A DNA stretch of 44,645 nucleotides from a marine bacterium B5-7 (GTDB lineage Bacteria > Pseudomonadota > Gammaproteobacteria > Arenicellales > CAJQKF01): the NCBI GenBank assembly GCA_021604525.1, contig BQJD01000032.1, positions 1 through 44,645 of the forward strand, read 5' to 3'. Position numbers and translations under genes: made by a program. The notes under the pieces were generated by a model. The model saw only the letters and a program-made list of their open reading frames with translations. It was not told where the DNA came from and did no database searches. Shown one piece after another: positions 9,211 through 26,639 of the stretch (position 1 is its first letter; each line of letters starts with the position of its first letter).

Positions 9211-10188
9211 ATGCACACTACGCCCTGTGACCGATGGCCTGACCAAAGCGTGTCGGTTCGGGACGTATTCGGCATCGATACCGATCTCAAGGTACCCGCC
9301 TTTCGTGAAGCCGACGATCACGTTCCGCCAATTGATTCCGTTTATCGATTTAATCCGGAAGTCACCCTGGCGATACTGGCGGGATTCTCCAATAACCGTC
9401 GGGTGTTGGTGCAGGGTTTACACGGTACCGGCAAGTCGACCCATATCGAGCAGGTCGCCGCGCGGCTCAATTGGCCCTGCGTGCGGGTCAACCTCGATGG
9501 TCATGTATCTCGTCTTGACCTGGTGGGACGTGATGCCGTGGTGATTCGCGATGGCCGTCAGGTCACGGAATTCAAGGAAGGCATCATTCCCTGGTCCATA
9601 CGCCGCCCGGCAGCACTGGTTTTCGATGAATATGATGCCGGACGTGCCGACGTCATGTTCGTTATCCAGCGGATACTCGAGCGCGACGGCAAGTTCACGC
9701 TGCTCGATGAAAACGAGGTCATTCAGCCGCATCCCGCTTTCCGACTGTTCGCCACGGCCAATACCATTGGCCTCGGTAATCTCACCGGGTTGTATCATGG
9801 TGCGCAGTTGCTGAATCATGCCCAGATCGATCGCTGGAATATTGTTGCCACGCTCAACTATCTGCCTCGCGATGAGGAAGTTGCTATCGTCCTTGCCCGT
9901 GTACCATCGTTTGATCATGCCGATGGTTGGGAAACGGTTGCATCCATGGTGGCGATGGCCGAGCTGACTCGACATGGATTCGAGGCGGGCGATCTATCGA
10001 CATTGATGTCGCCGCGTACCGTGATCACCTGGGCCGAGAACTTCGAGATTTTCAAGTCGCTTGAAATCGCATTCCGGTTGTCGTTCCTGAACAAATGCGA
10101 TGAGGCGGAACGACCCGTTGTCGCCGAATTCTATCAGCGCTGTTTCGGCGTCGAACTGATGCCGGGTGAGCATACGGAATCGAAGTGA
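9211..10188 (+). CDS. cobS: cobaltochelatase-type AAA+ ATPase CobS
   Basis: AAA+ ATPase of the MoxR/CobS class (325 aa), in aerobic cobalamin synthesis the motor that, with CobT, drives cobalt insertion by CobN. Walker A is GLHGTGKST (residues 69-77), Walker [10 protein letters not shown] (Asp139-Glu140), sensor 1 is in [11 protein letters not shown], and [14 protein letters not shown] plus [15 protein letters not shown] are the CobS N-terminal signature. The match to CobS is end to end rather than only the ATPase core. It overlaps the next gene by GTGA. No CobN or other corrin gene is in the window, so it may serve the classical complex in trans or another metallo-target. Start codon assigned from family length; the ribosome site is weak. 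Confidence 0.92.
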
Positions 10189-11888
10189 CCGCAAGCCAAC
10201 CAGCGGTTGAGCAGCAGCGCATCGAGGAACTCTGCGCGGCGGCCATGCGCGCGGTCAGTGGTGAATACGATCTCCACTTCAGGGCCCGCCAGGTTTTTCG
10301 TGGCGACACCCGCATCGCTGTAAATGCCCCCCATCTTGAATGCGCTGATGATGAGAGCCTGGGTGCGCGTCGCGGCGTCAGTGACGGTATCTCGTTAAAG
10401 CTTAAATTTTCAGATGCGGGCGTGCACCGACGCCTGTGTCCGGCATCGCCCGTTGCCCGCCTCGTCTTCGAGATGCTGGAGCAGTTCCGGGTTGAATCTC
10501 TCGTGCCATCGGAATTTCACGGCATACGCGCCAACCTGGATCAACGTTTCGATGCCTGGTCAGACGGTTTTGCCGAGTCCGGTTTTGTGGATACAGAGCT
10601 CGGAATTTTGATGTTCTCGGTGGCATTGATCTGCCGCGCGCGAATTCACGGCGGTGCTGTCGCCGAGCGATATGAAGATACGCTGGAGTCGACACGCGCC
10701 GGACTTGCGCCGCTGCTCGGACCGCACTTTGCCGGTATTCGCCGCCACCTTGAACATCAGGAGAACTTTGCCCGGCACGCCCTCGCCATCGCACGGATCA
10801 TCGACGACAGCGTAATTGCCGCAGAGGCGAGTGCACATCCGCGTAAATCCCGTGATGACGCCCGACGCTCGGTTTTTGCGCTGTTGATTGACTTTATCGA
10901 TGAAAACAAGGGCGGGCAGGGTCTGGCGGATTCAGGTGACAGCAAGACGCTGGCGGATTCAGCAGACGGTTACAGGGTGTTCAGCCGCCGCTACGATCGT
11001 GAGGTTGATGCTGGTGAGTTGGTGCGTGCTGCCCGTTTAGACGATCAGCGTCGCCGGCTCGATGAGATGATTTTAAAACAGGGAATCAACATCACACGGT
11101 TGGCCCGCTTGTTTCGTGGGCTGTTATCGATACCGGTTCACGATGGCGTCAACTTCGGTGAGGAGAGCGGCAGGATCGATGGCAGACGCCTGACGCAACT
11201 GATCGCATCGCCTGCTGAACGTCGGCTATTTTTGAGTGAGCGTCACGCCCCTCGCTCACAATGCCTGTTCACGGTGCTGGTGGACTGTTCGGGATCGATG
11301 CGCAAGGTAATGGATCAGGTAGCCTGCCTGGTGGATATCCTCTCCCGGGCATTGACGCGGGCCGGTGTCGATAACGAGATACTCGGTTTTACTACCAACG
11401 CCTGGAGCGGTGGTCGGGTGCAACGTGACTGGCTGCGTGCCGGTAGACCGGAATATCCGGGACGTCTCAACGAGACCTGTCACCTGGCCTTCAAGGACGC
11501 AGATACTTCGTGGCGGCGTGCACGCCGCTCGCTGGCCGCTTTGCTGACACCGGAATTGTTTCGCGAAGGCGTCGATGGCGAGGCGCTCGAATGGGCATGC
11601 CGCCGTTCGTTGTCCCATGACGCAAAACGACATATCGTGCTGGTCATATCGGATGGCAGCCCCATGGATACATCCACCGCACTCGCCAACGATCCGTATT
11701 ATCTTGATAATCACCTCAAGCAGGTCATCAATAACTTTGCTGGTGGCGTCGATATCATCGGCTTCGGTGTGGGGCTCGACTTGAGTCCGTACTACAATCA
11801 CAGTGTCGCCGTTGACCTTGAAGAGGGTCTCAACACGCAACACTTCCTCGACATACTCGAAGTGCTCCGGGGTCATCACCGGCGCTAA
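10185..11888 (+). CDS. cobT: cobaltochelatase subunit CobT with VWA domain
   Basis: CobT-type partner of CobS (567 aa, a little short for the family). The N-terminal half is helical and variable, with a modest acidic stretch around residues 230-250. The C-terminal third is a von Willebrand factor A domain with the MIDAS motif DCSGSM near residue 367 and the family blocks [36 protein letters not shown] and [11 protein letters not shown], then [11 protein letters not shown] start within the cobS stop (GTGA), so translation is coupled. In the known complex CobT bridges the CobS hexamer and CobN. Here CobN is absent locally and xsc is the upstream neighbour. Confidence 0.92.
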
Positions 11889-14802: not shown

Positions 14803-15795
14803 TCAGCCGTTTACATTGATGACTACGCGTCCTTTAACACGACCCTTGAGGATATTCCGGCCGAGTTCAGGAAGATCGCCAAGCTTTGCCTCGGTAGTCA
14901 GATCGTGCAATTTATCCATCGGCAGATCGGTGGCGATACGTTGCCACGCCTTGAGTCTGTTCTCGAACGGTTGCATGACGCTATCGATACCAAGCAGGTT
15001 GACGCCGCGCAGCAGGAATGGAATGACCGTGGCCGGTAAATCAGCACCACCTGCCAGTCCCACGGCGGCAACCGAGCCACCATAACGTAGTTGACCGAGT
15101 ACGCGTGCCAGCATGGCGCCGCCGACGGCGTCGACGCAACCGCACCAGTTCTCTTTTTCAAGTGGTCTTGAAGTGGTTTCATTGATCGTCTCGCGTGGCA
15201 CGATTTCACTGGCACCGAGCGATGCGAGGTAATCGGCCGTCTCGGGTCGTCCGGTGACGGCGGCTACGTTATAGCCGAGGCGCGCGAGAATAGCCGTTGC
15301 CACCGAGCCGACTCCACCGGCTGCGCCGGTGACCAGTACCGGCATTTCCTGAGGCTCCATGCCGTGCGCCTCCAGCGCCATGATAGCCAGCATGGCGGTG
15401 AAACCCGCTGTCCCCACAGCCATGGCATCGCGGGTTGTTAATCCGTCAGGCAACGGTACCAGCCAGTCGGCTTTGACCCGTGCTTTCTCGGCATAGCCGC
15501 CCCACCAGGACTCGCCGACCCGCCAGCCGGTCAGCACCACAGAATCGCCGATGGCATAACGTTCATCGCTGGACTCTTCTACCACGCCGGCAAAGTCGAT
15601 ACCCGGAACGTGCGGATAGTTTCGTACCAGCCCACCGCCCGGACCGATACAAAGGCCGTCCTTGTAATTCAGGGTCGAGTACTCAACTGCCACGGTGACG
15701 TCGCCTTGCGGGAGACGGGACTCATCCAACTGGCTGACCGATGCGTGCGTCGAGCCGTCGTCGTTTTTTTCAACTACCAGTGCGTTAAAGCTCAC
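14803..15795 (-). CDS. acuI: AcuI/YhdH-family acryloyl-CoA reductase-like protein
   Basis: Medium-chain dehydrogenase/reductase of the YhdH/AcuI group (about 330 aa). Known members reduce acryloyl-CoA to propionyl-CoA with NADPH, in DMSP and acrylate metabolism and detoxification. Seen here: LNYKDGLCIGPGGGLVR, PGIDFAGVV, GWRVGESWWGGYAEKARV and the NADPH motif VLVTGAAGGVGSVAT; the C-terminus reads GVNLLGIDSVMQP and GRVKGRVVI. The start is GTG 15795, 7 nt after gagg; a TTG one codon earlier is also possible. No DMSP lyase is adjacent, so a general acrylyl-CoA detoxification role is equally likely. Monocistronic by appearance. Confidence 0.9.
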   Translation of the reverse strand: MSFNALVVEKNDDGSTHASVSQLDESRLPQGDVTVAVEYSTLNYKDGLCIGPGGGLVRNYPHVPGIDFAGVVEESSDERYAIGDSVVLTGWRVGESWWGGYAEKARVKADWLVPLPDGLTTRDAMAVGTAGFTAMLAIMALEAHGMEPQEMPVLVTGAAGGVGSVATAILARLGYNVAAVTGRPETADYLASLGASEIVPRETINETTSRPLEKENWCGCVDAVGGAMLARVLGQLRYGGSVAAVGLAGGADLPATVIPFLLRGVNLLGIDSVMQPFENRLKAWQRIATDLPMDKLHDLTTEAKLGDLPELGRNILKGRVKGRVVINVNG

Positions 15796-15947
15796 CAAAT
15801 TACCTCATGATTTTATTAATTATGGATTGCCCGGCGACACAGTAAAGTAATTTGCTTAGCATGTGCTGTCTCGACAGGCGATTGCCCGATCAGGACACTA
15901 GAGACTGGACAATTCAATGTCAAACGCGATTGACAATGGTTTGCAAA

Positions 15948-17352: not shown

Positions 17353-17949
17353 TTATCGGATGGTGAATTGTCGAAGCAGTTGTATATGCATCTCAAGTGC
17401 TTCACGTTGCCGAGCCGGTGGCCAGCTTTGTGGACTGGTAACGGCGCTGGCGGTGAGTCCATTGAGGAAGTTGAGCAGCGATGCGTGTACCGCATCGAAC
17501 AACGATGCAGACCATTGTGTGGATTCCGGCCAGCACAGGCGAATAACCTTGGCATACAGTTCCACCGCATCATCATGCACGGCACGATTGACTCTCGCTA
17601 ATGTACGATCTGTCGTTACCCGGCCCCAGAAGCTGACCCACACGGCGCTTTCCCGTCGCCGTGCAGCATCAAGCGGCAATGATTCCTCGAGTATCGATAA
17701 CAACCGGTCCTCGCCATCGTCGAGGCGATTTAATACGCGCTGTTCGGTTCGTTGGAATACCAGCCGCAGCGCCGCCGCGACAATCTCCCGCTTGGTTTTG
17801 AAGTAGTGGGTAATCATGCCGGTAGTCACTTTTGCTTCAGTAGCGATATCGGCAAGAGTAGTAGCGTCGACTCCACGACGCGCCAGCGCACGACATGCCG
17901 CCAGGGCAATCTGGCGTCGTTGTACTTCATGGTTAACGACTTTGGGCAT
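17353..17949 (-). CDS. BetI-like TetR-family repressor
   Basis: TetR-family regulator (198 aa) closest in style to BetI, the choline-sensing repressor. The helix-turn-helix is DATTLADIATEAKVTTGMITHYFKTKREIVAAALR (residues 29-63), and the C-terminal ligand domain holds the BetI-like VWVSFWGRVTTDRTLARVNR. It is the last gene of the leftward butyrobetaine/carnitine operon, 41 bp after caiD. A quaternary amine such as carnitine, butyrobetaine or betaine is a natural ligand guess, supported only by context and BetI resemblance. I could not identify its operator upstream of the first gene. Confidence 0.88.
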   Translation of the reverse strand: MPKVVNHEVQRRQIALAACRALARRGVDATTLADIATEAKVTTGMITHYFKTKREIVAAALRLVFQRTEQRVLNRLDDGEDRLLSILEESLPLDAARRRESAVWVSFWGRVTTDRTLARVNRAVHDDAVELYAKVIRLCWPESTQWSASLFDAVHASLLNFLNGLTASAVTSPQSWPPARQREALEMHIQLLRQFTIR

Positions 17950-17990
17950 TTATTTGTCGAGCGAAATGCACTTGACGCTAACCGACAACG

Positions 17991-18773
17991 TTATCGACCC
18001 TGCCACTTCGGTTCGCGTTTCTCGGCAAATGCACGAGGTCCTTCTTTGAGATCCTCGGACTGGTTTACTGCGACGACAGTTGCACAGGCATCATGTACGG
18101 TGAAGGATTCGTGTTCGGACACCATCTCGGTTGCTCGCAGTACTTGCTTGATGGCCGGATACAGTAACGGCGGTCCGGCGACAAGCGTGGCCGCCACTTC
18201 ACGCGCCTTGGCGAGTCCTTCGCCTTTGGGAACCACGTAATTAACAAGGCCGAAGTGCTTGGCCTCGGTAACGTCCATCCAGCGACCGGTCATCATGAAT
18301 TCCACTGCGACATGATAGGGAATGCGCCGCCTTAGCTTGATCACGCCGGCATCCGGTAACACGCCGACATTGATCTCCGGCAGAGCGAAGCTGGCGTGCT
18401 CTTCGGCGACAATGAGATCGCATCCGAGCATCATCTCGAATCCGCCGCCGCAGGCAATTCCGTTGATTGCGGCGATGATGGGCTTGTTGAGATTGCGTGG
18501 ATAGTTGAGTCCGCCGAAACCGCCTTCACCGTAATCCGAATCGGATGCTTCACCGGTTTCGGCGACGTTCTTGAGATCCCAGCCGGCGCTGAAAAATTTA
18601 TCACCGGCACCCGTCAGGATAGCGAAACGAAGTTCAGGATCGTCCCGAAACGAAGTCCACAGCTTATTCAATTGGCGGCAATCGGTGGCCGAGATGGCGT
18701 TAGCCTTACCCTTGCAAAGGGTGACTTCAAGGACCGGTCCGCGACGTTCGGTTGTAAACGGTAGTTGGCTCAT
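17991..18773 (-). CDS. caiD: carnitinyl-CoA dehydratase / crotonobetainyl-CoA hydratase
   Basis: Crotonase-fold enzyme (260 aa) that interconverts crotonobetainyl-CoA and L-carnitinyl-CoA. Family features: KANAISATDCRQLN near the N-terminus, the oxyanion-hole segments FSAGWDLKNVAE and ACGGGFEMMLGCD, the acidic residue in ASFALPEINVGVLPD, and a C-terminus (EGPRAFAEKREPKWQGR) that is strikingly similar to E. coli CaiD as I remember it. The GYGEGGFGGL loop after the first motif is also CaiD-like. The ATG directly follows the TAA of the ligase gene, so the two are coupled. Confidence 0.88.
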   Translation of the reverse strand: MSQLPFTTERRGPVLEVTLCKGKANAISATDCRQLNKLWTSFRDDPELRFAILTGAGDKFFSAGWDLKNVAETGEASDSDYGEGGFGGLNYPRNLNKPIIAAINGIACGGGFEMMLGCDLIVAEEHASFALPEINVGVLPDAGVIKLRRRIPYHVAVEFMMTGRWMDVTEAKHFGLVNYVVPKGEGLAKAREVAATLVAGPPLLYPAIKQVLRATEMVSEHESFTVHDACATVVAVNQSEDLKEGPRAFAEKREPKWQGR

Positions 18774-20825
18774 TTAATTCTCCCGGATAGTGATGAGTGC
18801 ATCGGCGCATACGGTGCCCTTGCCGTTTGGCCTGACCATTAATGGATTGATGTCGAGTTCAGCGAGGCGAAGGCCAGGTATATCGATGATTACAGGCAGT
18901 GTCATGATGGTATTGATGACTGCCTGTCTGTCGCCTGGCAGCGCACCGCGCCAACCGTCGAGTAATCGGGACACTTTTAAACGTGATAGCGCCCGTTCGA
19001 CATTACTGCGTTTAAGCGGTAACAGCATGGCGATACGATCATTCAGTAATTCGGCATGGATACCGCCTGCACCGAAGCTGATGAAATGTCCGAAATCGGC
19101 GTCATGACCGATGCCGACGATCAACTCTGCCACCGCGTCGTCGATCATCTCCTCAATCAGCACCGTGTCGGTTAACCTGTCCATTGAACGCGCGGCGGCA
19201 AGTGCTGCGTCAGGCGTGGTGATATTCAAGACAACGCCGTTAACATCACTCTTGTGTGAAACGTCTTCCATCACCGCCTTGATGACCACGCGCCCGCCAA
19301 TACCTGCCAGTTGGTTGAAGACGTTGCCGGCGTCATTGATAGAAGAAGTCTGTCCCCGTGGAACTTTAAGGCCAGCACTCATCAGTAGCGTCTTGCTGTC
19401 AGGCTCGTTCATACGCACGAGTGCGCAGGAGGGCGATTCGGTAGAGCCTGTTAAAACCGGTGGTTGCCAGTTTTGCCAGCGTTCACCAACTTGAGCACCA
19501 TGGGCAAAGGCTTGCAGGAAGCTGGCAAGTCCCTGCATCGGCGCGACGCCGGCATCAAGACAACGGTTTCTGATTTCAACGGAAAGGCTTTCGGCGAGCG
19601 AGCTGATCAATACTGCCGGATTGCCTGTGGTTCGCGAGGCAGTCAGCATGGCGTCAATCGGCATCAGCCAGGTCGACAAGTCGGCTTCCCCTGCGGGCGG
19701 CGGGTCGAGTACGAAGGCGCAAAGCGCGGATTCATCCTGCATCAGTGCGCCAAACATGGCTTGCATGCGTTCACTATCGAACCAGGTCGCGGTACCGAAA
19801 TCCAACGGGTTGGCGATCGCCACCCGGGGACCCGTACTGGCCTTGAGCGCCTCGCTTTGAGCAGATGAAGGATCGCTGAATTCGATATCGAGATGGCGGG
19901 CGTTATCGCAGACCATCGCCATATCGCCACCCGAAGCGCCGGCTACAAACAGCTTTCGTGATTTAAGCGGACCGATACAGTGCAGCAGCTTCAGTGTTTC
20001 AAGAAGTTGATCCAGCGTTTCGCAGCGCGCCACGCCCAGCCTGTCGAAAAGCGTGTCATAGAGCGTATCGGAACCGGTCATCGCACCGGTATGGGTCAAC
20101 GCCACGCGTCGGCTCTTCTCTGATCGTCCGGCTTTAACAATGGCGACTGGCGTGGACCTGTCCTGGGCATGTTCGATGGCATCGGTAAAGCCGGCAACAT
20201 CGTTGATGCCTTCCAGATATAGACCGATGGCGCTGACTCTCGGGTCGTCGGCGAGATAGCGGATAAGATCAGCCGACGTCAGCCGCTGCTGGTTGCCAAG
20301 TGTCACTACAAAACCGATGTCCAGCGAACGTTGCTGATACATCAGCGTCAGGGCGATGGTGCCACTTTGGGTAATGATCGCTACACCGCGCTCTACCGCC
20401 TGACCCACCACCTGGTCGGGCCACATCGACACACGGTCGAAGAAGTTGACGAAGCCGTAGCAATTCGGGCCGATGAAGGGAATATCGCCTGACACCATAT
20501 GCAGACGGTCGCGGTAGTCGGCGCCGTCCGCGGTTTCGCCGAAACCCGATGCGAATATCACCGCGCCGCCTATGCCACGTGCAGCCTGGACTTCGAATTC
20601 ACTGACCGTTGCCTCGCGGTTGATCCCGAAGAAAACACTATCCGGCACGCCGGGCAGGACGTCGGTGGAGTTGAAATAACCGCTGCGATTGGGGTGTACG
20701 CACCAGATATCGCCCGGGTAACCCAGTTTCAAACATTGCTCGGCGACTGTATCCGACCAGCGCCCACCGTAGATTGCAATACTGCGGGGCTTGAACAACC
20801 GATCAAGATCGACGGCGGATGTCAC
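18774..20825 (-). CDS. NDP-forming acyl-CoA ligase (acetyl-CoA synthetase ADP-forming type)
   Basis: Fused alpha-beta acyl-CoA synthetase of the NDP-forming superfamily (683 aa). The order is a CoA-binding Rossmann domain (residues 1-130, with FIGPNCYGFVNF), a succinyl-CoA-synthetase-like domain with the phospho-histidine motif ALTHTGAMTGSDT (His245), a second flavodoxin-like domain, and a C-terminal ATP-grasp domain (from about 465; GGRVVIKAVMEDVSHKSDVNGV, then VLIEEMI, GAGGIHAEL and AELDINPLMV). GTG start overlaps the preceding stop (GTGA). In this operon it most plausibly activates gamma-butyrobetaine and/or carnitine to CoA esters, replacing the AMP-forming CaiC or the BcoAB ligase. The substrate is inferred from neighbours only. 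Confidence 0.88.
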   Translation of the reverse strand: MTSAVDLDRLFKPRSIAIYGGRWSDTVAEQCLKLGYPGDIWCVHPNRSGYFNSTDVLPGVPDSVFFGINREATVSEFEVQAARGIGGAVIFASGFGETADGADYRDRLHMVSGDIPFIGPNCYGFVNFFDRVSMWPDQVVGQAVERGVAIITQSGTIALTLMYQQRSLDIGFVVTLGNQQRLTSADLIRYLADDPRVSAIGLYLEGINDVAGFTDAIEHAQDRSTPVAIVKAGRSEKSRRVALTHTGAMTGSDTLYDTLFDRLGVARCETLDQLLETLKLLHCIGPLKSRKLFVAGASGGDMAMVCDNARHLDIEFSDPSSAQSEALKASTGPRVAIANPLDFGTATWFDSERMQAMFGALMQDESALCAFVLDPPPAGEADLSTWLMPIDAMLTASRTTGNPAVLISSLAESLSVEIRNRCLDAGVAPMQGLASFLQAFAHGAQVGERWQNWQPPVLTGSTESPSCALVRMNEPDSKTLLMSAGLKVPRGQTSSINDAGNVFNQLAGIGGRVVIKAVMEDVSHKSDVNGVVLNITTPDAALAAARSMDRLTDTVLIEEMIDDAVAELIVGIGHDADFGHFISFGAGGIHAELLNDRIAMLLPLKRSNVERALSRLKVSRLLDGWRGALPGDRQAVINTIMTLPVIIDIPGLRLAELDINPLMVRPNGKGTVCADALITIREN

Positions 20826-21820
20826 CCGCTTTTCTCCGCCCGGTGTCGCAGGTGTTTTTCAAATTGGTTCAAGGTCGCGCCGGAGGCCATATCATGTTTG
20901 CGCAGTACTCTTTGGATGGCCACCATGCACTCGTCACGTATACGTTCGAGTTCGCGAATCGAGCGGCCGCCGGCCTGTGCCTCGGTACCATCGGCGAAGC
21001 GCGCGACGATATCCTCCGACAATGGCGGTGCTTTTAAGTGTGACCAGGGCCACTCGAGCGCGGGACCGAACTGCTCGATAAAATGTCGTGCACCGCCTTC
21101 ACCGCCGGCGATCATGTAGATCTGGTTCATGCCCATGATGGCCCAGCGCAAGCCGGGTCCGTAGACGATTGCCTCATCGAGCTCGCCAGTGGTGGCGATG
21201 TCATCATTCAAGGCATGCAGGATCTCGCGCCACATGGCTTCTTGCAGACGATCGGAGATATGCCCCGGAACCTCACGTCGAACCATGAGCGCATGCATGC
21301 CGATGGATTCATAAAACCCGCGCGCCACCTGCTTGTATGAATCATCAGTTTCGTTGCCACCGACGATCTCCACCAGTGGACACAGATACACCGGATTGAA
21401 TGGATGGCCTACGATGAAGCGCTCCGGATGATTCATGCCGTGTTGCATTTCGCTCGGCATAAAGCCTGAAGTACTCGAAGCGATGATGACGTCGGCGGGT
21501 GCGTGCTCGGCGAGAGTTGCGAAGACCGAGCGCTTGATCTCAAGGGTTTCGGGAACGCTTTCCTGGATAAAGTCAGCGGTTAGTGCTACTTCATTAAAGT
21601 CGGTGGTGAAGCGCAGCATTCCACGCTGCGGCATGTCGATATCGGCAGTTAATGCATTAAGCGACGGCGCGGCATTGTCGATGGCGTCGTTAAGCCAGTC
21701 CTGCATTTTTGGATTCAGGTCGGCGGCAATGACATCGACGCCGGCGTGCAGCGCGCGTGCCGCCCAACCTGCGCCAATGACGCCGGTACCGATGAGGCCC
21801 AGACGATTAATCTCTCGCAT
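20822..21820 (-). CDS. L-carnitine dehydrogenase (3-hydroxyacyl-CoA dehydrogenase family)
   Basis: NAD-dependent dehydrogenase (332 aa) oxidising L-carnitine to 3-dehydrocarnitine; called LcdH or CdhA in characterised bacteria. The Rossmann motif is GLIGTGVIGAGWAARALHAG (residues 8-27), followed by VPETLEIKR, ASSTSGFMPSEMQ, and the catalytic segment VGHPFNPVYLCPLVEIVGG. The C-terminal helical domain has YGPGLRWAIMGMNQIYMIAGGEGG, a strong marker of carnitine rather than acyl-CoA substrates. The length fits the family without the thioesterase fusion seen in some members. It ends by a 4-bp overlap with the ligase gene. Confidence 0.9.
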   Translation of the reverse strand: MREINRLGLIGTGVIGAGWAARALHAGVDVIAADLNPKMQDWLNDAIDNAAPSLNALTADIDMPQRGMLRFTTDFNEVALTADFIQESVPETLEIKRSVFATLAEHAPADVIIASSTSGFMPSEMQHGMNHPERFIVGHPFNPVYLCPLVEIVGGNETDDSYKQVARGFYESIGMHALMVRREVPGHISDRLQEAMWREILHALNDDIATTGELDEAIVYGPGLRWAIMGMNQIYMIAGGEGGARHFIEQFGPALEWPWSHLKAPPLSEDIVARFADGTEAQAGGRSIRELERIRDECMVAIQRVLRKHDMASGATLNQFEKHLRHRAEKSG

Positions 21821-21927
21821 GGTGTTTAACTTCCGTTATGTGATTGGCGGTTTAAAGAATGAGCAATGATTGCAAGGTGTTATCGTTTAGATAGTTCCTG
21901 GCCATAGCCGCGGGTTCCGCGTTGTCG

Positions 21928-23094
21928 TCAGCAACCAAGTGGTCGCAGAAGTTCACGCGAGATAATGTGACGCTGGATTTCCGAAGTACCGTCCCATATG
22001 CGTTCGATGCGCGCATCGCGCCAGATACGTTCCAACGCCATGTCTTCCATTACACCCATGCCGCCAACGGTCTGTATGCATTGATCGCTGGTTCGCGCCA
22101 GCATCTCGGAACAGTACAGCTTGGCCATGGCGCAATCCCCGGGCGTGACCGTGCCCTGGTCGATTCGCCACGCGGTATTGAGCAGCAGCAGGTTGGCAAG
22201 ACGAATTTCAACGGCCATGTCGGCCAATGGAAAAGACACACCCTGGAATCGACCGATTTTCTGGCCGAACTGCTCGCGTTCGGCGGCGTAGTTGAGAGCG
22301 ATGTCGTAAGCCCGCTCGGCCCGCGCGACACAGGTTGCAGCGACCGTCAGGCGGGTCGGACCAAGCCATTGATTGACGAGTTCGAATCCTGCGCCTTCCT
22401 CACCCATGAGACGCCAGCCGGGTAGTCGGACATTATCGAAGCGCAGGATGTTGTTGGGATAACCGCGATGGGATACGTTGTTGTAACCCGGTAAAACTTC
22501 AACACCGGCATCGCTGAAATCAACCAGGAACGCCGAGATACGCTTACGGGTTGCAGGGCTGTTGGACTGCTCCTCGCCACTGGCAGCAAACAGCACACAA
22601 TAATCCGATACCTCGGCCTGGGAAATAAAATGTTTGGTGCCGTTGATAATCCACTCGTCGCCATCGCGCACTGCGCGACACTGCATGCCGCGCAAATCGG
22701 AACCCGCGCCGGGTTCGGTCATGGCGATGCAGTCGCGCTTTTCACCTTTGAGTGTCGGTTCAAGGAAGTGTTCAATCTGTGGACCTTCACAGGCAGCGAG
22801 AAGGTTCATTGGCCGATGGGCGCATTCGGCCAATGCCAGGGATGTTCGCCCCAACTCTTTTTCAATGAGCGTGACGGACACCGCATCAAGACCGCCGCCA
22901 CCGACATCCTCCGGCAGGTTGCAGGCATGCAGGCCAAGCTCGATGGAACGCTGCTTTAATTTTTTGGCCAGTTCTGGAGGGGTCTTGCCGGTACGCTCCA
23001 GGGTTTCTTCATGCGGTATCATTTCGCGCATGACGAACGCCCGCGTGGTATCGATGAGGAGCTGCTGTTCGCTGGTGAGTTCGAAGTCGATCAC
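21928..23094 (-). CDS. acyl-CoA dehydrogenase, probable gamma-butyrobetainyl-CoA dehydrogenase
   Basis: FAD-dependent acyl-CoA dehydrogenase (388 aa). FAD-binding segments are CIAMTEPGAGSDLRGMQ and WIINGTKHFISQA; the C-terminal four-helix domain has REQFGQKIGRFQG and QTVGGMGVMEDMALERIWRD. In short- and medium-chain family members the catalytic base is Glu in a YEGT motif; here it is Asp368 (IWDGTSEIQ). In context it should form crotonobetainyl-CoA from gamma-butyrobetainyl-CoA, the reverse of E. coli CaiA. The reading frame opens with GTG at 23094; an ATG two bases upstream is out of frame. First gene of the leftward operon, 107 bp from the next. Confidence 0.85.
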   Translation of the reverse strand: MIDFELTSEQQLLIDTTRAFVMREMIPHEETLERTGKTPPELAKKLKQRSIELGLHACNLPEDVGGGGLDAVSVTLIEKELGRTSLALAECAHRPMNLLAACEGPQIEHFLEPTLKGEKRDCIAMTEPGAGSDLRGMQCRAVRDGDEWIINGTKHFISQAEVSDYCVLFAASGEEQSNSPATRKRISAFLVDFSDAGVEVLPGYNNVSHRGYPNNILRFDNVRLPGWRLMGEEGAGFELVNQWLGPTRLTVAATCVARAERAYDIALNYAAEREQFGQKIGRFQGVSFPLADMAVEIRLANLLLLNTAWRIDQGTVTPGDCAMAKLYCSEMLARTSDQCIQTVGGMGVMEDMALERIWRDARIERIWDGTSEIQRHIISRELLRPLGC

Positions 23095-23220
23095 ATTAAA
23101 TCCCGGTCTGCGATGGTTTTTATATAACGACCATTATATTTAAAATGCAGAAAATAGCTGCAGAAAGTATTTATCAGATTGTGACCGGAATCGCGAAATT
23201 TTGCACTTTGGGCGACGGAG

Positions 23221-23306: not shown

Positions 23307-26300
23307 CTAACTGCCGGGCGCCGAACCACGACCTGTGCGTGGCTGTAGTTCAAGTTCAAGACTGAAGCCCAAAAAATACGAACCGCACAACGTGTTATCC
23401 GGGTAATCGTTGCGCAGCGGTGCGCGCAATCGAATACCGTTGTTCGCAGCGCGATCACTGTCGGATATCCAGAGTTGCGCCAACCGTGTCGCGTCAGCTT
23501 CAAACAGTCCACTTGAACCACCGCTTGTTTCAAGCCCAAGGGTGATTGAGCCCGGTATTACCCGGCTCTCGACCACGGCGAGGTCAAAATTATCGCCGTA
23601 TCCGGTCCAGTCTATGTAGGCCGCGTGGGCAGCGCGGGGGACCGCCGGGCACAGGCCGGGTCGTGGACGAACCGAACTGTCGTAACTGTAGCGATGGTTG
23701 ATATCACGGCTGCGGTTAAAACGGAGCGTGGCGCGAGTGACTTCAAGGTCGCCGCGTCGTGACAGGTCATCGGTATCGAAGCGCACAAAACCCTCCGCCT
23801 GTCCAAAGGTGCGTTCGGTGCACAGATTGGTGGTTCGTTCTTGATGGTTGATTGCAACCATGATCTCGTTGGCGCCCCGTGATGGCAGCGTATGATCGAA
23901 TATGAATCCAAGACCGAAGGCTTGCGGTGTGCAGCCTGAGCGTTCAGCGTTAAACCACTGGCCGGTTGCAAGCCTGGTGGGCTGCAGGTTCATGCGGATC
24001 AACGGATGTTCGGCATACTCGGCACGAGCCAGGTTTACCGTTTGCGCTGGTGCGGAATATTTCTTTGCATCGAGAAGCGTGCCGCGATCCGTCTCGAGAA
24101 TGGCCACCATGGCGTAATCAGGACCCGCCGACGTTGGAAAGGTGGTGTTAAGAACGATGCACTCGAAATTGCTCCAGCGGTCGCTGCCGGCTTCCGTTGG
24201 AACCGATGCCGTACCATGGTGACCGAGGCAGTCGACGTGATCGTAACTGGTAACGGCGGCGACCAGGCTGCCTGGGTCGGATGGCAGTCTGCTGACCGGT
24301 GCGTTCAGCAATTTCAACCGCAACCGGTATTGGCTGCGTGAACTTGCATAGTGCACCTGATGCAGTGACTTGAGTTGACTGTAGCCGGTATGTCGGGCAT
24401 TCAGTATCGCGTTGACATCGCCTGTGCTGCCCGCACGAACGGCGCTGGCGGTCTCGCCAACGACACGGCTCGCATGGTTGTTGGCATACCGCGATTCAGC
24501 ATAGGTTGGCGTAGCGCCGGGGCTGACTGATTCCGTGTTGAAATCGAGCAATGCAACCAACGCGCCCTGTTCGCGCCAATCGGGCAGGTACTCTTCGACA
24601 TCAATATAAATCAGGTTGCCGTAGCCGAATCCGAGATTGCGAACTGCCGCCGCGCGTGGACCGATGACGATGCCGCCGAGATCGCGAACCCGATCGGGTG
24701 ATTGATGTAATGATGCTGCATCGGCAATACCCCGATACTCACTGGCGGGTAGCAGGGTCAGTGTGTAATGGAATGTTCCAGGACCGGCATTGCCCTGGGC
24801 ACGAAACACCAATGGCAGGCGGATAGAAGTCGGGCCGGATCGTACGGGTGACGATATCGAGCCGGTCAGATCGGGCGCCAGCGGCGCGATAGTTGCGCTC
24901 ATTTCAGTCGCTGCTACGAGCGTATCGCCATAGGCAATGGGCACGATGTTGGTATTGCCATCCGTATGGTCGGTGAACTGATTGATACCGCCGTGATCCA
25001 CCATCAGGCAGCCCTTGGCGTAGTAGGTGGAGCCGCCAATGAACAGTCGCTCCCCGCTTACCGGATCAGTCGCGTCGAGATCGACATCGAAACCGCCGCC
25101 GCTCACGGGACCGCCGCCATCTGTTACATCGATGGTCAGAACGCCGATAGGCAGGTCACCGGTCCAGCCGCCGGATCCTGCGCCGCAATCCCCCGCGGGA
25201 AATTCGAGATCCTTTCGGAAACGTACCTGGATACCCATGACAGGATCACCGCCAACGGTCTCGGGCAACGACTCCCAGGTGACGCGCATGGGGCCGGATG
25301 AACCCACTGCAACCGGCGGTATGCCGAAGGAATCGTTTACCTTGAGGATCATGCCGAGAATGGCCGGAGTCAACCCGGCAGGCAGTGCGTTATTGGCTGT
25401 GGGAATGATCTCCGGATTTACTTCGAGATCAGGATTCTGTCGTCGGACGGACGCGCCGAACAAATTGGACAGATCAGTACGTGTCGACTCCTGCTGCAAG
25501 GAATTAGCGGGTGTACAAGTCACGTTATTATTCTCACGGGATTCCTTGACTGCGTTTGTGCTGTCAACAAAGGCACACCAGAAAAGCGGTACCTCGGGCA
25601 GCGTAGCCGGAACCTTGATGGACATCGACACGCGGCGTCGTTGACCTTTTTGAGGCACGCGGGGGATATTCTGACGCTGTTGGGCGAGGATGGTGCCACT
25701 ACCGGTGCCTGAGGTAAGCAGCGATCCAGGCAACAGCGAAGTGCTGGAACGATCACGATCCGTTAAAACCAATAGGACATCGAAGCGTTCGGCAGCGGAC
25801 GGATTGCTGCCGACATTGCGAACCAAGACCACCGCCGTTTCCGAACGCCCGGGGCGCAGGCGGTTGGCGTCAATGTCAGCTTCCAGGTCAACTGTGCCGG
25901 TGGCCTGTTGAATCGGCAGATCAGGTGCTGCGCAGCCTTTAACCTTAACCTGCTCAACATTGCCGGCAACTTCACAGCGTAACGTGTAGCCAGAACCGGC
26001 AACGATATTGTCAAGGCGATAGCGAAACTCAATCTCATTTCCAAGATAAGCATGCAGCCGGGGCCGCGAGCCACTGGTCGTTATCTCGCATTGAAGCCGA
26101 CTGCTTTTCAGGTTTTTACCGAGTACACGAATCTCGGATCCTGAACCAAGACACTGCGGGTGGACAATACGGTCGATACTTGCAGTGGGCTTGGCAGGCT
26201 CAATGGGTTTGACCGGTTTGTCGGGCAGAGGTGCAGGCGGTAAGGCGGGCAGGTTGGGTAGTTTCAGTTCACAGTAGGTCTGGTAGGTCTTTTCGAGTTC

Positions 26301-26525
26301 CTTGAGTTGGCTGGGACTGAGATTGCCCGATTGAATAAGTTTCGGATACTGCGAGTTACAGAATTTATCTATCTGGGCGGCGGAAGGTTGTTGACCGGCG
26401 TTGAGCTGCGTACCCTTGAAGATCATTCCACTACTGAATGTCTGCGCGTTAATGGATATCGACCACAACAGAGTTGTTGCGGTGAGACATTTCAGTACAA
26501 CTTTTGGGTTCAGCCAGGTCATCAT
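23307..26525 (-). CDS. large secreted protein with CARDB-like module, function unknown
   Basis: 1072 aa from the ATG at 26525, preceded by gagg; a further in-frame ATG upstream adds a non-signal N-terminus. The signal peptide ends near SISINAQ. A short helical region follows (DKFCNSQYPKLIQSG to KTYQTYC), then a Pro-rich linker (LPPAPLPDKPVKPIEPAK). Residues about 110-190 look like an Ig/IPT-type domain with four cysteines, and 195-330 a CARDB-like domain ending in FVDSTNAVKESRENNNVTC. The remaining 700 residues are beta-rich with repeated phrases of receptor or Ig type and about six scattered cysteines, ending in a Gly-Ser-Pro tail. No sorting signal, catalytic motif or secretion domain was recognised. 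Probably an extracellular or periplasmic adhesin-like or binding protein. Confidence 0.8.
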   Translation of the reverse strand: MMTWLNPKVVLKCLTATTLLWSISINAQTFSSGMIFKGTQLNAGQQPSAAQIDKFCNSQYPKLIQSGNLSPSQLKELEKTYQTYCELKLPNLPALPPAPLPDKPVKPIEPAKPTASIDRIVHPQCLGSGSEIRVLGKNLKSSRLQCEITTSGSRPRLHAYLGNEIEFRYRLDNIVAGSGYTLRCEVAGNVEQVKVKGCAAPDLPIQQATGTVDLEADIDANRLRPGRSETAVVLVRNVGSNPSAAERFDVLLVLTDRDRSSTSLLPGSLLTSGTGSGTILAQQRQNIPRVPQKGQRRRVSMSIKVPATLPEVPLFWCAFVDSTNAVKESRENNNVTCTPANSLQQESTRTDLSNLFGASVRRQNPDLEVNPEIIPTANNALPAGLTPAILGMILKVNDSFGIPPVAVGSSGPMRVTWESLPETVGGDPVMGIQVRFRKDLEFPAGDCGAGSGGWTGDLPIGVLTIDVTDGGGPVSGGGFDVDLDATDPVSGERLFIGGSTYYAKGCLMVDHGGINQFTDHTDGNTNIVPIAYGDTLVAATEMSATIAPLAPDLTGSISSPVRSGPTSIRLPLVFRAQGNAGPGTFHYTLTLLPASEYRGIADAASLHQSPDRVRDLGGIVIGPRAAAVRNLGFGYGNLIYIDVEEYLPDWREQGALVALLDFNTESVSPGATPTYAESRYANNHASRVVGETASAVRAGSTGDVNAILNARHTGYSQLKSLHQVHYASSRSQYRLRLKLLNAPVSRLPSDPGSLVAAVTSYDHVDCLGHHGTASVPTEAGSDRWSNFECIVLNTTFPTSAGPDYAMVAILETDRGTLLDAKKYSAPAQTVNLARAEYAEHPLIRMNLQPTRLATGQWFNAERSGCTPQAFGLGFIFDHTLPSRGANEIMVAINHQERTTNLCTERTFGQAEGFVRFDTDDLSRRGDLEVTRATLRFNRSRDINHRYSYDSSVRPRPGLCPAVPRAAHAAYIDWTGYGDNFDLAVVESRVIPGSITLGLETSGGSSGLFEADATRLAQLWISDSDRAANNGIRLRAPLRNDYPDNTLCGSYFLGFSLELELQPRTGRGSAPGS

Positions 26526-26639
26526 GTCATCCTCGCCCTCGCCGGTACGCTGAGTGTTGACTACAGATGATGAGTCGCAACATCGCGTCACAGCGTTCAA
26601 TCGGTCGATACAATGGTACACGAGCCTCTATGGAGTCGG

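What the first reader, a model, noticed from the sequence alone, without database searches (positions are those of the whole stretch)
17353..23094. Gamma-butyrobetaine/carnitine operon built around an NDP-forming CoA ligase
A leftward operon couples acyl-CoA dehydrogenase, L-carnitine dehydrogenase, NDP-forming CoA ligase, CaiD-like hydratase and a BetI-like repressor. The chemistry closes logically: activate gamma-butyrobetaine, dehydrogenate to crotonobetainyl-CoA, hydrate to carnitinyl-CoA, release L-carnitine, oxidise it to 3-dehydrocarnitine. The NDP-forming ligase replaces the AMP-forming CaiC or BcoAB, and its reversibility could also release carnitine and recover ATP, combining the ligase and thioesterase roles.
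Basis: partly seen in the sequence, partly recalled or inferred. Interest (0 to 1): 0.7.

Follow-up and report, generated by a model that had tools for sequence, protein, structure and literature searches.

The report
Butyrobetaine-to-carnitine operon with ADP-forming ligase
Five neighbouring bacterial genes very probably turn gamma-butyrobetaine, a common nitrogen-containing small molecule, into carnitine and start breaking it down, using an energy-saving type of activating enzyme that proves widespread in related bacteria and is probably the same kind of enzyme as one already known from a root-nodule bacterium.

Summary
The whole order recurs in a same-family genome and, as far as its contig reaches, in a same-genus one, each with an ATATAATnnnCGTTATAT palindrome before ACAD, matched without mismatch once in the window's genome.

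The pathway reading holds. Of 369 genomes of the class (own included), 16 carry a close ligase, 20 an LCDH, 15 both. [quoted passage not shown] The window's genome has a matching BKACE (76% identical to that of Sinorhizobium meliloti) and a thioesterase candidate, unlinked. The ligase keeps the phosphohistidine and has aromatic residues at or near two sulfonium-binding positions of DddX, its nearest solved relative; DddX's lyase base is missing.

The novelty claim is weak: S. meliloti carries this ligase between ACAD and CaiD, so its known gamma-butyrobetaine:CoA ligase BcoAB is probably this enzyme, not the thing replaced. ATP recovery through carnitine release is possible but untested.

The parts
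21928..23094 (-). acyl-CoA dehydrogenase (ACAD), proposed gamma-butyrobetainyl-CoA dehydrogenase; catalytic-position carboxylate Asp368 at 21991-21993
   Evidence: Pfam; NCBIfam (no cut-off reached); carboxylate D 67 / E 22 of 89 distinct homologues
20822..21820 (-). L-carnitine-dehydrogenase-like 3-hydroxyacid dehydrogenase, no fused thioesterase domain; conserved His139 at 21404-21406
   Evidence: His in 66 of 66 distinct homologues; tree
18774..20825 (-). NDP-forming acyl-CoA ligase, fused alpha (about 1-455) and beta ATP-grasp (about 470-683) parts; proposed gamma-butyrobetaine:CoA ligase
   Evidence: AlphaFold2 mean pLDDT 87.1, pTM 0.86; best fold match DddX 7cm9, TM 0.89
20091..20093 (-). 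phosphohistidine His245 of the ligase (DddX His292)
   Evidence: His in 97 of 97 cluster ligases and 9 of 9 distant ones, distinct sequences; role of His292 from PMC8163506 passages
19782..19811 (-). motif NPLDFGTATW (residues 339-348) of the ligase; usual family form NP[LF]D-[YF]-[HQN]-T-[YF]-x-W
   Evidence: Trp348 in 97 of 97 cluster ligases and 1 of 9 distant ones. DddX Trp391 aligns with Gly344 inside the motif. Gly344 occurs in 0 and Ala346 in 1 of the 97 others.
19668..19670 (-). Trp386 of the ligase, aligned with DddX Phe435
   Evidence: W, Y or F in 95 of 97 cluster ligases, 4 of 9 distant ones; alignment, of middling certainty there
17991..18773 (-). CaiD-like crotonase, proposed crotonobetainyl-CoA hydratase; both catalytic-position Glu (E113, E133)
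   Evidence: both Glu in 94 of 94 distinct homologues
17353..17949 (-). BetI-like TetR-family regulator, last gene of the operon
   Evidence: 54% identical orthologue in the same place in L194
23122..23139 (.). palindrome ATATAATGGTCGTTATAT, 27 bp upstream of the ACAD start; candidate operator of the TetR
   Evidence: same palindrome before ACAD in L193 and L194; the only match without mismatch in the genome

Best explanation
This is a locally regulated catabolic operon for gamma-butyrobetaine. (1) The NDP-forming ligase, through a phosphohistidine, makes gamma-butyrobetainyl-CoA from gamma-butyrobetaine, CoA and ATP, giving ADP and phosphate. (2) The ACAD oxidises it to crotonobetainyl-CoA, passing electrons to ETF. 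(3) The CaiD-like enzyme hydrates it to carnitinyl-CoA. (4) L-carnitine is released, most simply by the same ligase running backwards (net ATP cost near zero) or by a thioesterase. (5) The LCDH oxidises L-carnitine to 3-dehydrocarnitine with NAD. (6) An unlinked BKACE (contig C46) cleaves that with acetyl-CoA to acetoacetate and betainyl-CoA, and an unlinked 4HBT thioesterase (contig C49) would give glycine betaine. The BetI-like TetR would repress the operon at the palindrome before ACAD. Shown here: the genes, conserved order, co-occurrence, conserved catalytic positions, presence of BKACE and a thioesterase candidate, the conserved palindrome. Inferred: every substrate, the direction of step 4, the regulator's ligand and site.
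For: Order ACAD-LCDH-LIG-CaiD(-TetR) conserved in the same genus and family. In 369 genomes of the class, own included, close ligase (>300 bits) in 16, LCDH (E<=1e-40) in 20, both in 15 (Fisher p 1.3e-21, not corrected for descent). Of 80 named ligase loci: CaiD 79, ACAD 71, thioesterase domain 53, BKACE 48, LCDH 46, CdhR-like AraC 35, TetR 8; all five enzymes in 38. LCDH genomes without the ligase: 4 of 5 have BKACE-LCDH-thioesterase without ACAD or CaiD in the 15-20 kb fetched, so ACAD+LIG+CaiD behaves as a gamma-butyrobetaine add-on to a carnitine module. Own C46 BKACE lies among the operon BKACEs in a tree and is 76% identical to that of S. meliloti. S. meliloti has the same cluster with the ligase in place. 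Aromatic motif specific to cluster ligases. No AMP-forming ligase and no class III CoA-transferase match on the window's contig.
Against: No assay. No protein reaches an NCBIfam equivalog cut-off. BKACE, thioesterase and BCCT transporter are on other contigs, and the regions fetched around them lack the palindrome. The window's ligase departs from the family at Gly344 and Ala346 and is only 52-55% identical to its family relatives, where LCDH, ACAD and full-length CaiD are 74-84% (TetR 54%). One genome (G051) has BKACE, LCDH and ACAD but no ligase was found. One genome with a close ligase (G195, 58% complete) showed no LCDH. 22 of the 80 loci have only ACAD, LIG and CaiD of the five enzymes.
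Confidence: 0.8

Rival explanations
1. The ligase is a DddX-type ATP-dependent DMSP lyase and the operon is for DMSP, with the nearby AcuI (14803-15798) reducing acryloyl-CoA.
For: DddX is the nearest solved relative by profile and by fold; AcuI passes its NCBIfam cut-off (443 of 440) and lies about 1.6 kb beyond the TetR gene.
Against: Only 24% identity. DddX's general base Glu432 (PMC8163506, passages) falls on Leu383, variable in the family; DddX Trp391 falls on Gly344. LCDH, BKACE and CaiD have no known role in DMSP cleavage. AcuI was not found in the 18 kb around the same operon in L194.
Confidence: 0.04
2. The operon serves another omega-onio acid of the same shape (for example a dimethylsulfonio or longer-chain betaine), with gamma-butyrobetaine a side substrate.
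For: A second complete set of the same five enzymes with a different ligase motif (NPLDYTTP[LM]WG) exists in relatives, so the scaffold may diverge in substrate; the window's ligase has two odd motif positions; module-B LCDHs of the order score nearer to the L-carnitine dehydrogenase model (408 and 386 of 414 in two of three scanned, 294 in the third) than the window's (346 of 414).
Against: In the LCDH tree a supported branch (96/81) joins the window's clade with the S. meliloti type, apart from module B, though the root is weak; the own BKACE is 76% identical to the S. meliloti one. PMC12482172 (passages) cites SM2011_c01638 of S. meliloti as oxidising carnitine and cleaving betainyl-CoA.
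Confidence: 0.12
3. Same pathway, but carnitine is released from CoA only by a thioesterase or by CoA transfer; the ligase works in the forward direction only.
For: A thioesterase related to that fused to LCDH exists in the genome; four class III CoA-transferase genes exist elsewhere in the genome, and relatives of them lie near the ligase in 5 of 20 loci of the order; bbu and cai systems use CoA-transferases (PMC8364193 and PMC2131755, passages).
Against: The thioesterase is also present in carnitine-only clusters (4 of 4), which points to betainyl-CoA; a class III CoA-transferase is near the ligase in only 2 of 80 named loci and 0 of 20 of the class.
Confidence: 0.5

Closest known systems
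Sinorhizobium/Rhizobium carnitine cluster with BcoAB (gamma-butyrobetaine:CoA ligase)
   Same: AraC-BKACE-LCDH/thioesterase-ACAD-NDP ligase-CaiD in S. meliloti Ak57 and Sinorhizobium sp. K101 and in Rhizobium freirei L108.
   Different: Window: order ACAD-LCDH-LIG-CaiD-TetR, BetI-like TetR in place of AraC, LCDH without fused thioesterase, BKACE and thioesterase unlinked. That BcoAB is this gene is inferred from position; the primary paper (Bazire 2019) is not held.
DddX, ATP-dependent DMSP lyase (7cm9)
   Same: Same fused NDP-forming fold (TM 0.89), phosphohistidine, aromatic residues at or near the onio-binding positions.
   Different: No DddX general base; different gene neighbours; 24% identity.
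Pseudomonas aeruginosa cdh carnitine system
   Same: LCDH, BKACE, betainyl-CoA thioesterase, AraC/DJ-1 (CdhR-like) regulator in relatives. The P. aeruginosa gene make-up is partly recalled.
   Different: The ACAD-LIG-CaiD gamma-butyrobetaine add-on is present here.
E. coli cai operon (CaiC, CaiB, CaiA, CaiD)
   Same: CaiD-type hydratase and an acyl-CoA dehydrogenase family enzyme.
   Different: CaiC is an AMP-forming ligase (class recalled) and CaiB a CoA-transferase; CaiA is a crotonobetainyl-CoA reductase (PMC2131755, passages). No PF00501 or PF02515 match lies on the window's contig.
Emergencia timonensis bbu/gbu cluster
   Same: ACAD on gamma-butyrobetainyl-CoA.
   Different: Anaerobic, two class III CoA-transferases, leads to trimethylamine (PMC8364193, passages).
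SAR11 island with gamma-butyrobetaine dioxygenase
   Same: Carnitine dehydrogenase and BKACE downstream of gamma-butyrobetaine (PMC12421898, passages).
   Different: Uses a dioxygenase instead of the CoA route; no full-length one found in the window's genome with PF06155.

Membership tests
NDP-forming acyl-CoA synthetase (ACD) superfamily | CoA-binding/ligase alpha part and ATP-grasp beta part | tested here: met
   Succ_CoA_lig and ATP-grasp_5 above cut-off; full-length fold matches
NDP-forming acyl-CoA synthetase (ACD) superfamily | phosphohistidine on the swinging loop | tested here: met
   His245; His in 106 of 106 distinct homologues
NDP-forming acyl-CoA synthetase (ACD) superfamily | ADP, not AMP, as product | not testable with these tools
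   needs an assay
DddX DMSP lyase | general base Glu432 | tested here: not met
   Leu383 in the aligned place, variable in the family
DddX DMSP lyase | cation-pi residues Trp391 and Phe435 | tested here: inconclusive
   Gly344 at 391, but Phe343 beside it and Trp348 four residues on; Trp386 at 435
BcoAB of S. meliloti | gamma-butyrobetaine:CoA ligase encoded in the carnitine cluster | tested here: inconclusive
   Same ligase type lies at that place in S. meliloti Ak57; BcoAB's sequence and locus tag could not be read
CaiC-type AMP-forming ligase | AMP-binding domain PF00501 | tested here: not met
   not among the ligase's Pfam matches; none of the 31 PF00501 matches in the genome is on contig C32
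L-carnitine dehydrogenase (NCBIfam equivalogs) | score above curated cut-off | tested here: not met
   346 of 414 and 372 of 592 bits; nearest models all the same
Crotonobetainyl-CoA hydratase (NCBIfam equivalog) | score above curated cut-off | tested here: not met
   270 of 500 bits, best of 72 families
Hydratase-type crotonase | two catalytic Glu (definition recalled) | tested here: met
   E113 and E133; Glu in 94 of 94 distinct homologues at both
Aerobic carnitine catabolism (LCDH-BKACE-thioesterase) | BKACE of the carnitine type in the genome | tested here: met
   C46 copy, 79% to L048 and 76% to S. meliloti; one of six own BKACEs
Aerobic carnitine catabolism (LCDH-BKACE-thioesterase) | betainyl-CoA thioesterase | tested here: inconclusive
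   C49 ORF matches the thioesterase half of carnitine 3-dehydrogenase, 117 bits; function not tested
BetI choline-sensing repressor | score above curated cut-off | tested here: not met
   79 of 201 and 78 of 118 bits; BetI-type C-terminal domain present

The most novel reading that the evidence does not exclude
The ligase is the hub of an ATP-neutral CoA cycle: one phosphohistidine enzyme loads gamma-butyrobetaine with CoA and unloads carnitinyl-CoA, recovering the ATP, so that it does with one protein what E. coli does with a ligase plus a CoA-transferase. In the window's order 75 of 109 genomes, own included, have the ligase, and several carry two complete, differently tuned sets.
Probability: 0.3. 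Interest if true: 0.6.

Novelty: new member of a known kind. Interest (0 to 1): 0.35.

Why it matters
Public annotation calls these ligases 'acetate--CoA ligase family protein' or 'acyl-CoA synthetase' where it names them. The motif, gene context and phylogeny given here would let them be renamed as probable gamma-butyrobetaine:CoA ligases in many marine and soil proteobacteria, and suggest that the CoA route to carnitine, which needs no oxygenase, is common there. If the ligase also releases carnitine with ATP recovery, the pathway's energy budget changes, and an enzyme useful for making carnitine would be explained.

Tried and rejected
DMSP lyase reading, rejected on Glu432 and gene context. 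Gamma-butyrobetaine dioxygenase route: the only PF06155 match in the genome is a 124-aa open frame, which looks too short for that enzyme (length recalled), so none was found with this model. Class III CoA-transferase or AMP-forming ligase beside the operon: none on the window's contig. Regulon idea: the palindrome before ACAD has no match, up to 3 mismatches, in the regions fetched around the BKACE, thioesterase and BCCT genes. Genome-wide there are six hits at up to 2 mismatches, two of them the two strands of the ACAD site, and the reversed control gives the same totals, 3 and 3; so only the perfect match stands out. I first read the two-piece ligase of S. meliloti Ak57 as separate alpha and beta genes, which would fit the name BcoAB. 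A GTG start does exist in the second frame, so this is not excluded; but the record is one base shorter than K101 over a stretch 94.9% identical, so a frame broken in that record is the simpler reading and I do not build on the split. Literature: ten searches listed no paper whose title or abstract start reports an NDP-forming gamma-butyrobetaine ligase; PMC11291895, listed for 'butyrobetaine' with 'ADP-forming', was not opened; subscription papers, including Bazire 2019, are not held. This is no proof of absence. Of six papers I read passages only: PMC8163506, PMC2131755, PMC12421898, PMC12482172, PMC8364193, PMC12542648.

The class counts come from the window's own proteins alone. Longest-ORF gene calls miss genes in GC-rich loci, so the neighbour counts used are those by tblastn. 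Residue counts held some places twice (short and long loci of the same genome); I recounted on distinct sequences and use those numbers (97 cluster ligases, 9 distant). CoA-transferase counts rest on four proteins of the own genome as queries, E<=1e-10; AMP-ligase counts on two queries.

Full report
OBSERVATION. They are tightly packed: LCDH and ligase overlap by 4 bp, ligase and CaiD abut, 41 bp separate CaiD and TetR, 107 bp separate ACAD and LCDH. NCBIfam gives carnitine 3-dehydrogenase and L-carnitine dehydrogenase, crotonobetainyl-CoA hydratase and BetI as nearest models for three of them, all below the curated cut-offs. The ligase's nearest NCBIfam models are ADP-forming acetate, 3-hydroxypropionate and 4-hydroxybutyrate ligases, far below cut-off.

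CONSERVED OPERON. A same-genus genome (G387, L193) has ACAD-LCDH-LIG and the start of CaiD before its contig ends; a same-family genome (G389, L194) has all five genes in the same order. Another same-genus genome, G388 (93% complete), showed no ligase at E<=1e-60. In L194 the identities to the window are ACAD 78%, LCDH 74%, CaiD 78%, TetR 54% and ligase 52%; in L193 ACAD 84%, LCDH 78% and ligase 55%. The ligase drifts faster than the other enzymes here. In all three genomes a palindrome, ATATAATnnnCGTTATAT, lies just before the ACAD gene. In the window's genome it has one perfect match, at 23122-23139. It is the natural candidate for the TetR's operator; binding is not shown.

NEIGHBOURS OF THE LIGASE ELSEWHERE. 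In 369 genomes of the class, own included, 16 had a ligase above 300 bits and 20 had an LCDH at E<=1e-40; 15 had both, where chance alone would give about one (Fisher p 1.3e-21 without correction for descent). Of the 17 strong ligase matches outside the window, 16 have an ACAD in the fetched neighbourhood; the seventeenth (G354) has its ACAD, CaiD, LCDH and BKACE on another contig. Of 9 weaker matches (below 240 bits) none has an ACAD within 1.5 kb; in the three of these fetched at up to 20 kb, one (L056) has an ACAD relative of 175 bits 6.7 kb away, and CaiD relatives of 64-196 bits lie beside them. The eight weaker matches that entered the tree form one clade apart from the cluster ligases. 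A scan of named genomes kept 80 loci: CaiD in 79, ACAD 71, thioesterase domain 53, BKACE 48, LCDH 46, CdhR-like AraC 35, BetI-like TetR 8; all five enzymes in 38, only ACAD-LIG-CaiD in 22; the commonest arrangement, in 19, is AraC / BKACE-LCDH-thioesterase-ACAD-LIG-CaiD. The five LCDH genomes without a close ligase tell as much: four have BKACE-LCDH-thioesterase without ACAD or CaiD in the 15-20 kb fetched; the fifth (G051) has BKACE, LCDH and ACAD but no ligase that I could find. So ACAD, ligase and CaiD behave as an add-on that feeds gamma-butyrobetaine into an L-carnitine pathway.

THE REST OF THE PATHWAY IN THIS GENOME. Six BKACEs are present. One, on contig C46, is 79% identical to the BKACE of the L048 operon and lies inside the tree of operon BKACEs; the other five are 24-34% identical to it, and two of them entered the tree, far off. 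The C46 copy is 76% identical to the S. meliloti BKACE. It lies among osmolyte and amino-acid genes. A 4HBT protein on contig C49 matches the thioesterase half of carnitine 3-dehydrogenase (117 bits), near a choline-dehydrogenase-like gene. One BCCT transporter is on C16. Two Rieske proteins weakly resemble glycine betaine monooxygenase (136 and 147 of 670 bits). The palindrome is near none of the BKACE, thioesterase or BCCT genes, so common control is not supported.

THE LIGASE. AlphaFold2 gives a confident model (mean pLDDT 87.1, pTM 0.86). The best fold match is DddX (TM 0.89, 24% identity), then 4-hydroxybutyryl-CoA synthetase and PatZ. His245 matches DddX's phosphohistidine and is invariant. 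By docking and mutation, DddX holds its sulfonium with Trp391 and Phe435; Glu432 is its proposed general base (PMC8163506, passages). Around the Trp391 position the cluster ligases mostly read NP[LF]D-[YF]-[HQN]-T-[YF]-x-W, with the last Trp (Trp348) in 97 of 97 distinct sequences against 1 of 9 distant homologues; at Phe435 they have W, Y or F in 95 of 97 (4 of 9 of the distant ones); at Glu432 nothing is conserved. This fits an aromatic site for a quaternary ammonium without lyase activity. It is an inference from alignment; I had no coordinates to measure. The window's copy reads NPLDFGTATW: Phe343 and Trp348 are kept, Gly344 is in none and Ala346 in one of the 97 others, that one being the SAR324 ligase L063, its nearest neighbour in the tree. 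L193 and L194 read NPLDFHTHNW and NPFDFHTYTW.

IS IT NEW? S. meliloti Ak57 (record CP090106.1) is annotated GlxA regulator, BKACE ('3-keto-5-aminohexanoate cleavage protein'), carnitine 3-dehydrogenase, acyl-CoA dehydrogenase, an unlisted stretch, and crotonobetainyl-CoA hydratase. The unlisted stretch encodes the ligase, 74% (first part) and 61% (second part) identical to that of Rhizobium freirei, in two frames; Sinorhizobium sp. K101 has it in one frame. No other CoA ligase is in the record's gene table within 8 kb (that table is incomplete), and two AMP-forming ligase queries found nothing there. [quoted passage not shown] meliloti BcoAB' with ATP and CoA to make gamma-butyrobetainyl-CoA (passages), and PMC12482172 (passages) cites work on S. 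meliloti showing that SM2011_c01638 oxidises carnitine and releases glycine betaine from betainyl-CoA. BcoAB is therefore most likely this ligase. I could not read the primary paper, so this stays an inference, at about 0.8.

HOW IT PROBABLY WORKS. Ligation, dehydrogenation and hydration at the CoA level, release of carnitine, oxidation to 3-dehydrocarnitine, cleavage by BKACE, release of glycine betaine. The release of carnitine is the open step. The thioesterase is found also in carnitine-only clusters, so it seems to belong to betainyl-CoA; relatives of the genome's class III CoA-transferases are near the ligase in 2 of 80 named loci, 5 of 20 loci of the order and 0 of 20 of the class, AMP-forming ligases in 1 of 80, 1 of 20 and 3 of 20. 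ADP-forming ligases are often reversible (recalled).

BEYOND THE FINDING. In the window's order 75 of 109 genomes have the ligase, many two copies. A second set, LIG-ACAD divergent from CaiD-LCDH-BKACE with motif NPLDYTTP[LM]WG, was seen complete in seven loci, two from the class and five from the order; its LCDH nearly reaches the L-carnitine dehydrogenase cut-off in one of three scanned (408 of 414). What the two sets divide between them is unknown. In relatives of one family the first set sits beside the cell-division genes, after lpxC and, in three of four, before secA.

VERDICT. A real, conserved operon with a well-supported pathway assignment (0.8) and a probably known type of ligase. 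Interest 0.35.

Noticed in passing
L195, L197, L199, L203, L212, L052, L053: A second complete set of the same five enzymes (LIG-ACAD divergent from CaiD-LCDH-BKACE) with ligase motif NPLDYTTP[LM]WG, in genomes several of which also carry the first set; what it is for is unknown.
   Followed up: partly
L198, L200, L202, L211: In four order relatives the operon lies beside the cell-division cluster murB-ftsQ-ftsA-ftsZ-lpxC; in L200, L202 and L211 secA and argJ follow on the other side (families scanned in one or two of the loci, the rest by BLAST cluster).
   Followed up: partly
L215:301-2142 (own genome, contig C24): One 613-aa ORF joins a BetI-like TetR regulator to a Rieske oxygenase resembling glycine betaine monooxygenase.
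   Followed up: no
window 14803-15798: Acrylyl-CoA reductase AcuI (passes its cut-off) about 1.6 kb beyond the TetR gene; an AcuI-like gene also lies near the ACAD-CaiD-LCDH-BKACE genes of L177, but none was found in L194.
   Followed up: partly
window 19782-19811: The window's ligase lacks two residues of the substrate-site motif that its genus and family relatives keep, which may mean changed specificity or relaxed constraint.
   Followed up: partly
ACAD homologues, position of window Asp368 (21991-21993): The catalytic-position carboxylate is Asp in 67 and Glu in 22 of 89 distinct homologues; classic acyl-CoA dehydrogenases have Glu there (recalled).
   Followed up: no
L216:8001-10027 (S. 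meliloti Ak57): The ligase stretch reads in two frames in this record and is not in its gene table, while K101 has it in one frame.
   Followed up: partly
L023/L056 and L027: Distant, non-cluster ligases read NPLDAW-like with Trp where DddX has Trp391, so they may be nearer to DddX in substrate than the cluster ligases.
   Followed up: no
window 9211-11888: CobS-like and CobT-like cobaltochelatase genes in tandem; both score below the NCBIfam cut-offs.
   Followed up: no
window 23307-26621: An 1104-aa ORF upstream of the operon on the same strand without any Pfam match at E<=1e-5.
   Followed up: no
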